This document shows, piece after piece, positions 49,203 to 53,301 of a stretch of DNA of 64,000 bases. The DNA is from Microcella flavibacter (GTDB lineage Bacteria > Actinomycetota > Actinomycetes > Actinomycetales > Microbacteriaceae), in NCBI RefSeq assembly GCF_012530535.1, contig NZ_CP051299.1:1736001-1800000 (forward strand), in the 5' to 3' direction. Below the pieces are notes generated by a model. That model was not told the DNA's origin and ran no database searches. It worked only from the letters and a program-made list of their open reading frames with translations. The position numbers and the translations under genes are program-made. How positions within the stretch are numbered: the stretch's first letter is position 1; the number at the start of each line of letters is the position of its first letter.

Positions 49203-49844
49203 TCACGCGATTTTCTCCGCCGTCACGATGTAGTTGTCGGTGTAGCTGCGGGCCGCGCGGTCGAAATCGCCGCCGCAGGTGACGAGCACGAGGTGCGGCG
49301 CGCCGGCCTGGGTGAAGACACGGTCGAGCGGCACCTCGGCCTTCTCGATGCGCTCGACGGTCGTCACGCGGTAGACGTGGGTCGTGCCGTCCGCGTCGAC
49401 CACGGTGGCCTCGGCACCCACCTGCGCCTCGCGCAGCCGGGCGAAGGGGCCGATGCCCTGCACGGGATCGTCCACGTGCGCGGCGATCACGGTGGATCCC
49501 TCCGCGCTCGCGGGGCCGGCGCCGTACTGGTACCAGCCCGCGATGTCGATGTCCTCGGGGATGGACATGTACCCGTCCGGCTCCACGCCCTCCGGCTCCA
49601 CCGGCACCTCGATGCCGAGCGAGGGAACCGAGAGCAGGCCCGGGGCGACGACCGGGGTGGCCTGCTGCTGCGCGGGGTCGCCCGGCGCGGTCTGCGCCGA
49701 GAACGGCGCCGTCGCGACCGGTGCGGGCGTCGGGGTGGTGCTCGGCACCGCCGCCGGAGGGGCGGGCGGTGCCGAGCACGACGCGAGGAGGAGAGCTCCT
49801 GCCGTCGTCAGGGCGATGGTGGCGGGAACCCTCCGCCTCGTCAT
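49203..49844 (-). CDS. class F sortase with lipoprotein signal
   Basis: A 213-residue sortase. The signal peptide ends in LASC (Cys23), so it may be a lipoprotein, which is unusual for sortases. A Pro/Thr-rich linker is followed by the class F domain: IDIAGWYQYGAGP, catalytic His122 (IAAHVDD), Cys189 (LVTCGGDFD) and Arg198 (ARSYTDNYIV). Class F enzymes join proteins with sorting signals to the envelope. It starts 17 nt after the DUF4397 gene, so that product is the obvious candidate partner. Confidence 0.92.
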   Translation of the reverse strand: MTRRRVPATIALTTAGALLLASCSAPPAPPAAVPSTTPTPAPVATAPFSAQTAPGDPAQQQATPVVAPGLLSVPSLGIEVPVEPEGVEPDGYMSIPEDIDIAGWYQYGAGPASAEGSTVIAAHVDDPVQGIGPFARLREAQVGAEATVVDADGTTHVYRVTTVERIEKAEVPLDRVFTQAGAPHLVLVTCGGDFDRAARSYTDNYIVTAEKIA

Positions 49845-49861
49845 CTCTACTACCTCGTGTC

Positions 49862-50710
49862 TCAGCGCTCGGCGGAGACGGTCTTGCGACGGACCACGAT
49901 GCCGACCGCGGCGAGCGCGGCGAGCATCAGGGCGACACCGGCACCGATGAGGCCGGCGTTGCCGCCCTCGGCGACGAGGCCGGCGCTACCGGCGGGGATG
50001 CCCTCCGGAGCGGCACCGAGACCGTCGATGGTGATGACGGCGAACTGCAGGCTGTCGCCCTCGAGGCTGCCGATGGCGTGGACCAGCGTGTTCGTGCCGG
50101 CGGCCAGGGGGAGCGCTGCCGGGCCGATCACGGGGTCGGTGGTGCCCGCAGCGGCGACCGCGGCCTGCACCTCACCCGCGGCGAGGTCGATGTTGCCCTG
50201 GTTCGGGTTGGTCACGCCGGCGAAGGCCTCGACCGAGGTGCCGTTGGCGAGCACGTCGACCGCGGGAGCGGCGGCGGTGTGACGCACGGTCAGGCGAGCC
50301 TGGCCGGCGGCGATGTCGCTGACGTTGTTCTCGAAGGCCGTGAGCGCGGGGGTCTCGTCGGCGTTGAGGTGGGCGACCACCGTGACGCTGGCACCGGCGG
50401 TGAGGGTGGCGTCGAGCGTCAGGGCGGGCTCGCCCGTGCCGTCGGCCGCGTCGCCGGGGAAGACGTCGATGTTGTACTCGCCGGCCGGGAGCGCGAGCGG
50501 CTCGGCGGTGACGGTGCCGAAGGTCACGTCCTGCAGACCGGCGACGGCCTCGCCGTTCGCGTAGATGTCGACCGGGAAGTCACCCTCGCCGGGGACGCCG
50601 TGGACGACGTAGAGGTCGGCGGTGCCGGCCGTCGAGGCGGCGGCGGGGGCGGCGATGCCCACGGTGGCGAGAGCGGCGACGCCGACTCCCGCGAGAATAC
50701 GGTTGCGCAT
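49862..50710 (-). CDS. DUF4397 surface protein
   Basis: A 282-residue exported protein. The signal peptide ends near AAPAAAS (residue 26). Two DUF4397 beta-sandwich repeats follow (ADLYVVHGVPGEGDFPVDIYANG near 32, and ARLTVRHTAAAPAVDVLANG near 138). The C terminus has a Gly-rich stretch, one membrane helix (about 252–272) and a basic RRKTVSAER tail, the layout of a cell-wall sorting region but without an LPXTG. AAGGAGG precedes the ATG. The upstream 150 bp show no clear housekeeping promoter, so the neighbouring ECF sigma factor may drive it. Confidence 0.9.
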   Translation of the reverse strand: MRNRILAGVGVAALATVGIAAPAAASTAGTADLYVVHGVPGEGDFPVDIYANGEAVAGLQDVTFGTVTAEPLALPAGEYNIDVFPGDAADGTGEPALTLDATLTAGASVTVVAHLNADETPALTAFENNVSDIAAGQARLTVRHTAAAPAVDVLANGTSVEAFAGVTNPNQGNIDLAAGEVQAAVAAAGTTDPVIGPAALPLAAGTNTLVHAIGSLEGDSLQFAVITIDGLGAAPEGIPAGSAGLVAEGGNAGLIGAGVALMLAALAAVGIVVRRKTVSAER

Positions 50711-50868
50711 GGTTCCTCCTTGTAGACGCCCGCCCGGCGGGTGCCGAGATCGGGTTCGTGCGGAATGCCTTACATGGATCACTTCCGCGCGGAGGACGCG
50801 TTCGGATGCGCTGGAGGCTGGCAGAATCCTGGGGGTGGAGCGAGCGGCGCCGGGGAGCGGGGACCGCG

Positions 50869-51633: not shown

Positions 51634-51774
51634 CGCCCCGCCCTTCCGCCCGCGACCGATTCCGAGCGTTTCGGGGCCTGCCCCAGGGTAGTGAGCGGAG
51701 GGTCGGATGCCCTTCCCCCCGTCATGGGGAGGACGCGCCCGCTCGGCGGCGCCGCACCGGTGCGCGACGGGGTC

Positions 51775-51803
51775 TTGACGGCGCCCCCGCGCGGGAGCAG
51801 TAT
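51775..51803 (+). promoter_or_regulatory. strong promoter for the structured intergenic RNA
   Basis: TTGACG (51775–51780) is 17 bp from CAGTAT (51798–51803), the best -35/-10 pair in the window outside the SOS promoters. It points into a 280-nt region full of hairpins and is not followed by a plausible coding gene on the plus strand for over 1.5 kb. Confidence 0.65.
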
Positions 51804-51809
51804 GGCCGC

Positions 51810-52088
51810 AGATCAACTCACCGCCCAGACGCGCCGGAGGCATCGCCCCGCCGCTGGGCGGTGAGTCTGTTAACGGGGCCGCCCACGATGAGCCCGCCCA
51901 CCCCCGAAGTGGGGGCCCGAACCACCCCAACCGCTGGGGCCGGGGTGCCGAACCCCACCAGCAAGGGGAACCGCATCACCCCGTGCAGCAGGGGGACTGC
52001 TGGACGGGATCCACTCCGCCGAACGGGTCGGCGGAGCGCGGAAACGCTGTGGTCCGGTCGTCGCGCTGGGGAGCCTGACGACCGGACC
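51810..52088 (+). ncRNA. candidate structured non-coding RNA of unknown class
   Basis: A chain of stems fills this stretch: a 12-bp stem at 51817–51828/51854–51865 (CTCACCGCCCAG), 5-bp stems at 51901–51915, 51925–51939 and 51942–51956, a 4-bp stem at 51965–51982, CAGCAG/CTGCTG at 51986–52002, a 9-bp stem at 52014–52036 (CTCCGCCGA), and a 12-bp terminal stem at 52051–52088. A promoter sits just upstream. No open frame here looks coding. RNase P, tmRNA and SRP signature sequences are absent. I see nothing in 51634–51774 other than the promoter. Confidence 0.6.
52051..52088. terminator. 12-bp hairpin ending the RNA region
   Basis: GGTCCGGTCGTC and GACGACCGGACC form a perfect 12-bp stem with a 14-nt loop. 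It ends 10 nt before the stop of the convergent PrsW-like gene, so it can terminate both units. Confidence 0.7.
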
Positions 52089-52098
52089 CGCACTCCGC

Positions 52099-53301
52099 TC
52101 AGCCCCGCGGAGCGTTCGCCCGCAGCGCGTGCCGCGCGGCGGAGACCCGCTCGAGCAGCTGCGCCTCGTCGACGCGGGCCCCGATGCGATCGCGGCCGGT
52201 CAGGATGCGCTGCCGGGCGTGCGCGAGCCGGGTCGCGTCGCGGATGAAAGCGGCCATGAGGCGGGATGCCCCCGCGCGGGCCGCCCATGCGGTGGCCGCG
52301 CGCCGCCCCGCCGGTGTGGCGAGCATCCCCACCTCGTCGGCGTGCAGCCAGCCCGCCTGCGCGTACTCGCCGAGCCGCGCCCGGGTGAGGCGCATCTCCT
52401 GCCGGCGCAGCATCGTGACGAGCGCGATCGCGATGAGGAACAGCGGCACCTGCACGAGCAGGTAGTAGCCGTAGAAGTCGCCGACGAAGAACAGGGCGCC
52501 GTTCCAGAAGGCGTGCAGCAGCACGGCGGGCACGAGGCCCAGCAGGAACGCGCCGAGCCCGACGCGGGCGCCGCGCTGCGCCGCCGCGCCGAGGGCCGCG
52601 CCGATGAGGGCCGTGAACATGACGTGCGCGAAGGGCGACATGAGCCCGCGGATGACGAAGATCTCGATGGTGCCCGCGGTCAGCACCCCCTCCTCGGTGA
52701 GCTGCAGGCCGAAGTAGAGGATGTTCTCGGTGAAGGCGAAGCCGCCGGCGACCCAGGCGGCGTAGACGATGCCGTCGACCGGACCGTCGAAGTGGCGGCG
52801 GGCGCCCCACAGGATGAGCAGCACGCCGATTCCCTTCGCCACCTCCTCGACGATGGGCGCCTGCACGGCGGCGCCGAGGAACTCGGTCGCGGCGGCCGGC
52901 GTGCCCGTCGCGGCGAGCGCGCCCTGCACCTGCACGTCGACGAGCAGCGCGATGAGCACGCTCGCCCCGGCGCCCCAGAGGAAGGCGAAGACGAGGGCGC
53001 CGCGCGGCTCGGGCTCCCAGCGGTCGATCCAGCGCACCCCGAGGAAGACGATCGTGAGCGGCACGAGCGCCATGACGGCGGCGATGACGACGCCGATCTC
53101 GCCGAGCCCCGAGACGAGGTACGCGAGCACGGCGAGGGCCAGCAGCGAGACGAGGACGAGGCCGACGACGGCGAGCAGCGTCGACCCGGCGCCGCGGGCG
53201 CGGCGTCCCGTCAGGGCCGGGGGCTGCGCGGGGTGCGAGGTCTCCGCGCGCACCGCGTCGGGGGCGGCGGCGAGCGGAGTCGGGCGGGGCTGCTCGGTCA
53301 T
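52099..53301 (-). CDS. PrsW family intramembrane metalloprotease
   Basis: A 400-residue membrane protein with eight or nine predicted segments. The PrsW motifs are EEVAKGIG (catalytic Glu pair), GGFAFTENILYF, SPFAHVMFTALIG and LLHAFWNG, in the right order. In Bacillus PrsW cleaves the anti-sigma factor RsiW; an anti-sigma gene is close by here, but a link is only a guess. The C-terminal 90 residues are cytoplasmic and helical. The ATG at 53301 is chosen since TAGAGT lies 7 nt upstream. Confidence 0.9.
   Translation of the reverse strand: MTEQPRPTPLAAAPDAVRAETSHPAQPPALTGRRARGAGSTLLAVVGLVLVSLLALAVLAYLVSGLGEIGVVIAAVMALVPLTIVFLGVRWIDRWEPEPRGALVFAFLWGAGASVLIALLVDVQVQGALAATGTPAAATEFLGAAVQAPIVEEVAKGIGVLLILWGARRHFDGPVDGIVYAAWVAGGFAFTENILYFGLQLTEEGVLTAGTIEIFVIRGLMSPFAHVMFTALIGAALGAAAQRGARVGLGAFLLGLVPAVLLHAFWNGALFFVGDFYGYYLLVQVPLFLIAIALVTMLRRQEMRLTRARLGEYAQAGWLHADEVGMLATPAGRRAATAWAARAGASRLMAAFIRDATRLAHARQRILTGRDRIGARVDEAQLLERVSAARHALRANAPRG

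What the first reader, a model, noticed from the sequence alone, without database searches (positions are those of the whole stretch)
51775..52088. Unidentified structured RNA with its own promoter and terminator
Seen: TTGACG-N17-CAGTAT, then about 280 nt with at least eight stems, two of 12 bp and one of 9 bp, all perfect, in a gap without a coding frame. The last stem can terminate transcription. Known RNAs I could check by signature (RNase P, tmRNA, SRP) do not match. Inference: an abundant small RNA or a large cis-acting element of a new or poorly known class. It is the least explained item in the window.
Basis: partly seen in the sequence, partly recalled or inferred. Interest (0 to 1): 0.75.

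Follow-up and report, generated by a model that had tools for sequence, protein, structure and literature searches.

The report
Family-wide hairpin RNA beside prsW
The stretch holds a small hairpin RNA gene with its own promoter that is kept across much of a large bacterial family but matched no catalogued RNA family, joined here to a longer folded tail found only in close relatives; its job is unknown.

Summary

(1) P1 (51810-51874): a promoter plus one long hairpin. It is in 24 of 26 Microcella genomes and, with a covariance model, in 139 of 249 Microbacteriaceae genomes (47 of 85 genera). In 56 aligned sequences 15 of 20 pairs show compensatory changes (0 of 500 shuffles reach this). A TTG/xAxxxT promoter is present in 47 of 56, against 0-3 of 56 at control offsets. 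No Rfam family reaches threshold. In 40 of 101 loci the next thing downstream is the convergent end of prsW, so P1 is not mainly a leader of a downstream gene. I read it as a standalone, trans-acting small RNA whose serially bulged inner helix binds a protein (protein binding is inferred).

(2) A 3' structured domain (about 51900-52088), in 7 of 26 Microcella genomes, all 7 lacking the MDRT gene that follows P1 in the sister group. Between the window and its nearest relative 5 of 42 named pairs changed on both sides and none broke. The last stem has no U-run; neither termination there nor a single 280-nt transcript is shown.

Not Ms1 by synteny; Scr6106 only below threshold. No expression data.

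The parts
51775..51780 (+). -35 element TTGACG
   Evidence: TTG at this place in 22 of 22 Microcella loci and 51 of 56 family sequences
51798..51803 (+). -10 element CAGTAT (xAxxxT)
   Evidence: A2 and T6 kept in 22 of 22 Microcella loci, 48 of 56 in the family; spacer 17
51810..51874 (+). P1: family-wide hairpin RNA; inferred start at A51810
   Evidence: R2 and R3 matches; fold z -6.70; covariation
51816..51828 (+). P1 outer stem, 5' arm (13 nt)
   Evidence: perfect arm; helix 1 has changes on both sides at 11 of 13 pairs in A8
51829..51853 (+). P1 inner helix with single-nucleotide bulges and triloop
   Evidence: fold; helix 2 has changes on both sides at 4 of 7 pairs
51854..51866 (+). P1 outer stem, 3' arm
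   Evidence: perfect arm
51867..51874 (+). tail CTGTTAAC after P1, only weakly U-rich here
   Evidence: sequence; below the terminator scan's threshold
51901..51915 (+). P2 hairpin CCCCC-GAAGT-GGGGG of the 3' domain
   Evidence: present in 7 of 7 sequences, 4-5 bp, no covariation
51945..52091 (+). 3' domain as aligned (P5, P6, GNRA-type hairpin, P7)
   Evidence: G018 81% identical; model R1, built without G000 and G018, finds G018 at E 0.0011 but not G000 at E 0.1
51980..52008 (+). P5: two 5-bp segments around a G.G mismatch, loop GGGGGAC
   Evidence: 2 compensatory pairs against G018
52014..52036 (+). P6: 9-bp hairpin
   Evidence: 3 compensatory pairs against G018; arms re-paired in 7 of 7
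52038..52047 (+). GCG-GAAA-CGC small hairpin
   Evidence: also in G018; not seen in the other five
52051..52088 (+). P7: 12-bp last stem, inner GCT-GGGG-AGC, no U-run after it

Best explanation
P1 is an independent small RNA gene of Microbacteriaceae. SHOWN by comparison: a conserved promoter directly upstream, a conserved 12-13-bp outer stem, an inner helix broken by single unpaired nucleotides about every two base pairs on the 5' side, and a moderately U-rich tail. INFERRED: transcription starts at 51810, the RNA is about 60-66 nt, the hairpin itself (helped by the tail) ends the transcript, and the RNA acts in trans. Because the apical triloop and the 5' tail vary while bulged or unpaired nucleotides inside the helix are kept, I think it most likely works by being bound by a protein (as a cofactor, decoy or regulator of it) rather than by base-pairing with mRNAs. 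In the window's clade RNA polymerase probably reads through P1 part of the time into a lineage-specific 3' domain, giving a longer RNA of about 285 nt (inferred).
For: R2, built from Microcella only, finds P1 at E <= 1e-4 in 102 of 249 family genomes by my count of the listing, 97 outside Microcella; R3 in 139 of 249 (most of its 56 training sequences come from those genomes). Covariation: 96.8% of cells paired, 15 of 20 pairs changed on both sides, 141 such cells, 0 of 500 shuffles; slid controls at most 58.1% paired. Promoter 47 of 56 against 0-3 of 56 at seven offsets and 4 of 56 antisense. G-U 34 against A-C 11 cells favours the + strand (cells not independent). In 40 of 101 loci prsW converges within 450 nt with no MDRT gene between, 30 of them outside Microcella at about -1 to 166 nt (six repeats removed by hand). 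Neighbours differ between loci. Kept unpaired bases: G28 51/56, A35 51/56, A41 52/56, C52 54/56; variable triloop positions 42-43. Eight members folded alone have z -3.2 to -6.7.
Against: No transcript data. U content next to the stem is the same on both strands (4.6 of 9 each), so the hairpin could as well end transcripts of the converging gene. In the window the tail is too poor in U for the terminator scan. In 26 of 101 loci the MDRT gene follows on the same strand, so a leader role there is not excluded. 110 of 249 family genomes gave no match at E 0.001 (strict filters). No protein partner is known. The loose serial-bulge pattern fits 39 of 56 sequences, not all. R1 does not recover G000 itself.
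Confidence: 0.66

Rival explanations
1. P1 is only an intrinsic, perhaps bidirectional terminator for prsW and whatever converges on it; the RNA has no function of its own.
For: U-rich flanks on both strands; prsW converges on it in 40 of 101 loci.
Against: A promoter sits directly in front of it in 47 of 56. The inner helix with its kept unpaired bases is not needed for termination. In 26 of 101 loci MDRT lies between P1 and prsW, and in 33 of 101 neither prsW, MDRT nor HelR was found close by in the order scored.
Confidence: 0.13
2. P1 is a cis-acting 5' leader or attenuator of a downstream gene (ancestrally MDRT).
For: MDRT starts 14-360 nt (alignment start) after P1 in 26 of 101 loci, including 14 outside Microcella; 14 of 24 Microcella loci have it.
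Against: P1 and its promoter are kept where no co-directional gene follows (40 of 101), with the same loop sequence.
Confidence: 0.12
3. The whole 280 nt is one RNA class and the 3' domain is its working part; P1 is the 5' domain.
For: Same orientation and order in 7 of 7; compensatory changes in P5 and P6; no separate conserved promoter seen by eye before the 3' domain.
Against: P1 exists without it in 17 of 24 Microcella loci; the sister group G013, G014, G006 has P1 but only 61-77 nt up to the prsW end.
Confidence: 0.07
4. A DNA-level inverted repeat (operator or mobile repeat) without RNA function.
For: Long palindrome; G126 carries tandem copies.
Against: G-U bias to one strand, fixed promoter, mostly one match per genome.
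Confidence: 0.02

Closest known systems
Ms1 RNA (6S-related RNA of Actinobacteria, binds RNA polymerase core)
   Same: Actinobacterial, structured, intergenic, strongly diverged between genera (PMC9130861, abstract and found passages)
   Different: Ms1 is recognised by HAD-hydrolase synteny and is longer than 200 nt; here the neighbours are prsW and others, and P1 is ~65 nt. PrsW and Microbacteri* occur nowhere in that main text.
Rfam RF02827 Scr6106 (Streptomyces sRNA)
   Same: Window 52016-52091 and G018 match in the same register: hairpin, short hairpin, long last hairpin (32.0 and 32.1 bits)
   Different: Gathering score is 52.5; E 0.049 and 0.045; the two matches are homologous, so not independent. 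The match concerns the 3' domain only.
Intrinsic terminators
   Same: GC-rich hairpin followed by some U
   Different: Own promoter, conserved inner bulged helix
ANTAR-target RNAs of Actinobacteria (PMC8164766, listing and start of abstract only)
   Same: Protein-recruiting structured RNA
   Different: Recalled definition is two stem-loops with hexanucleotide loops; P1 is one hairpin with a 3-nt loop

Membership tests
Any Rfam 15 family | score at or above the gathering cut-off | tested here: not met
   0 matches in the whole window and in 20 family loci, 140,020 bases; E <= 10 scans of window 51700-52130, L002 and L127 give only sub-threshold matches
Ms1 RNA | flanking HAD hydrolase synteny | tested here: not met
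   flanks are zinc-ribbon protein, prsW, Ada/AlkA; definition from PMC9130861 passages
Ms1 RNA | binding to the RNA polymerase core | not testable with these tools
   needs immunoprecipitation
Scr6106 (RF02827) | gathering score 52.5 bits | tested here: not met
   32.0 and 32.1 bits
Small RNA gene (standalone) | own conserved promoter | tested here: met
Small RNA gene (standalone) | conserved structure with compensatory changes | tested here: met
Small RNA gene (standalone) | own terminator | tested here: inconclusive
   mean 4.6 T in 9 nt after the stem over 56 sequences, equal on the other strand; no scan hit in the window
Small RNA gene (standalone) | detected transcript | not testable with these tools
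   no expression data
tRNA/tmRNA | ARAGORN model | tested here: not met
   0 genes in the window
ANTAR-target RNA | two hexaloop stem-loops (recalled) | tested here: not met
   P1 is a single hairpin with triloop

The most novel reading that the evidence does not exclude
P1 founds a new, unannotated RNA family of Microbacteriaceae: a standalone protein-binding RNA whose recognition element is a helix with single-nucleotide bulges about every two base pairs; in one Microcella lineage the RNA was enlarged to ~285 nt by a new multi-hairpin domain that took the place of a protein gene (MDRT).
Probability: 0.35. Interest if true: 0.8.

Novelty: new variant of a known kind. Interest (0 to 1): 0.62.

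Why it matters
An RNA with this much covariation, a fixed promoter and presence in more than half of the sampled genomes of a family, yet absent from Rfam, is an easily testable unknown. Actinobacteria lack the usual RNA chaperones (recalled), so a strongly structured, probably protein-bound small RNA would be a handle on how small RNAs work there. The Microcella locus also offers a dated case of an RNA gaining a 3' domain where a coding gene was lost.

Tried and rejected
Ms1: rejected on synteny. Scr6106: sub-threshold. Spread outside the family: 10 genomes outside Microbacteriaceae matched R3 at E <= 0.01 among the 297 of the order sample, best 1.4e-5; I looked at six of these ten: none keeps the inner bulged helix, several lie in apparent coding DNA or are plain palindromes, so I count them as chance; the other four were not looked at. 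3' domain outside its clade: R1 finds nothing at E 0.1 in the other 19 genomes of the genus; R1 was not run outside the genus. MAFFT alignments A1 and A4 of the seven long sequences are not in structural register for G000 and G018, so pairs were counted on named helices, which were chosen because they pair. RNAalifold on A1 gives a covariation term of +1.08, i.e. no support on that alignment, with 9 of 73 predicted pairs changed on both sides. MDRT was matched to no family above cut-off. Literature: seven searches listed no paper on this RNA; only PMC9130861 was opened (abstract, outline, found passages); all others were seen as listings with the start of the abstract.

Full report
WHERE. The window lies in a Microbacteriaceae genome; the exact P1 loop pattern in named genomes gives 11 loci, among them Microcella pacifica, M. 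putealis and M. alkaliphila, the others MAGs or strains named to family, genus or class, and the window genome shares a genus with the handles holding those contigs. The gap is between a zinc-ribbon protein gene and prsW, both on the minus strand; Ada/AlkA follows on the plus strand.

THE OBSERVATION. Promoter hexamers, stems and fold stability are as described. Rfam at gathering threshold: nothing in the window. tRNA/tmRNA: none.

WITHIN THE GENUS. BLAST with 51790-52110 finds the 5' part in 21 of 25 other Microcella genomes; G007 and G009 have it too, so 24 of 26; G008 and G011 (82% and 71% complete) gave neither it nor prsW. prsW follows P1 in all 24 (partial at contig ends in G020 and G025). 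On the other side DUF4397 and sortase genes were found in 18 of the 21 loci. After P1 there are three arrangements: 14 genomes have a plus-strand gene that I call MDRT (about 354 aa, two predicted membrane stretches by weak Pfam matches; a remnant in G020); 7 (G000, G018, G019, G023, G024, G002, G003) have no MDRT and a gap of about 280-380 nt; 3 (G013, G014, G006) have only 61-77 nt. The promoter is kept in 22 of 22 loci scored: TTG at -35, xAxxxT at -10, spacer 17 or 18, 10-11 nt before the stem's CA(A/G)CTC.

THE 3' DOMAIN. The seven gaps share an order of hairpins: P2 in 7 of 7, P6 with quite different arms re-paired in 7 of 7, P7 in 7 of 7. Between G000 and G018, 42 pairs of the named helices compare as 36 unchanged, 5 changed on both sides, 1 changed to G-U, 0 broken. 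Model R1, built from five sequences without G000 and G018, finds G018 at E 0.0011 and no other place in the genus at E 0.1 besides its own five; it does not find G000, which shows only a partial 21-bit match. So G000 is tied to the rest through G018 (81% identity over 172 nt). Alone, the 3' domain of G000 has z -2.88. RNAalifold on the raw alignment gives no covariation support. In a tree of four neighbouring proteins the 14 MDRT genomes group together (support 79-83), the seven plus three others group together only weakly (62), and the three short ones join G000 and G018 (97): the simplest reading is one gain of the 3' domain and one later loss.

THE FAMILY-WIDE PART. Near prsW in other genera I saw a similar hairpin with other stem letters (G031, G027). 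R2, built from 22 Microcella sequences, matched 133 of 249 family genomes at E <= 1, 102 of them at E <= 1e-4 by my count. From 63 loci I aligned 56 (seven left out without a selection rule beyond reducing near repeats). Pair counts: 96.8% of 1105 cells paired (shuffles 85.3), 15 of 20 pairs changed on both sides (6.5), covariation score 0.360 (0.144), 0 of 500 shuffles reaching any of the five measures; slid controls pair 30-58%. R3 finds 139 of 249 family genomes at E <= 0.001, 47 of 85 genera (strict filters, training sequences included). In 297 genomes of the order, 21 of the 31 matching genomes are Microbacteriaceae; the ten others are weak.

STRAND AND PROMOTER. One scan, applied alike to site and controls: TTG plus xAxxxT at 47 of 56 sites, 0-3 of 56 at seven offsets, 4 of 56 on the other strand. 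G-U 34 against A-C 11. U content after the stem is equal on both strands, a result against a strand-specific terminator.

NEIGHBOURS. One search scored 107 entries; six repeat a genome (L082, L084, L085, L086, L162, L163), leaving 101: 40 prsW convergent within 450 nt without MDRT, 26 MDRT next downstream, 2 a HelR/HelD-like gene convergent, 33 other. prsW is somewhere in the fetched stretch in 73 of 101 (many stretches reach only 1.5 kb). A HelR/HelD-like gene lies just upstream, divergent, in 6. That protein scores 585 bits against NF041258, below its cut-off of 1100, so the name is approximate.

HOW IT MAY WORK. The order of unpaired bases on the 5' side of the inner helix, with two base pairs between them, recurs in most members (39 of 56 by a loose pattern; folds). 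Kept unpaired bases inside the helix with a variable loop and tail suggest recognition by a protein. This is inference. The presence of HelR-like genes next to it is a lead only.

VERDICT.

Noticed in passing
L053:4166-5227 (+) and equivalents: MDRT: a ~354-aa protein with no Pfam or NCBIfam match above cut-off, between P1 and prsW in 14 of 24 Microcella loci and 14 of 79 scored loci outside the genus; lost in the window's clade.
   Followed up: partly
L132:1284-3500 (+); upstream of P1 in L092, G264, G077, G191, G112, G129: HelR/HelD-like RNA polymerase motor gene beside P1 in several genera.
   Followed up: partly
L169:1501-1690: Tandem copies of the hairpin: two model matches, a third visible by eye.
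   Followed up: partly
L143:2509-2573: A second, weaker hairpin match (40 bits) about 1 kb before the main one, without the usual inner helix.
   Followed up: no
window 52016-52091: Sub-threshold resemblance of the 3' domain to Streptomyces Scr6106, kept in G018.
   Followed up: partly
window 49203-50713: Sortase-like and DUF4397 genes kept beside this locus in the genus.
   Followed up: no
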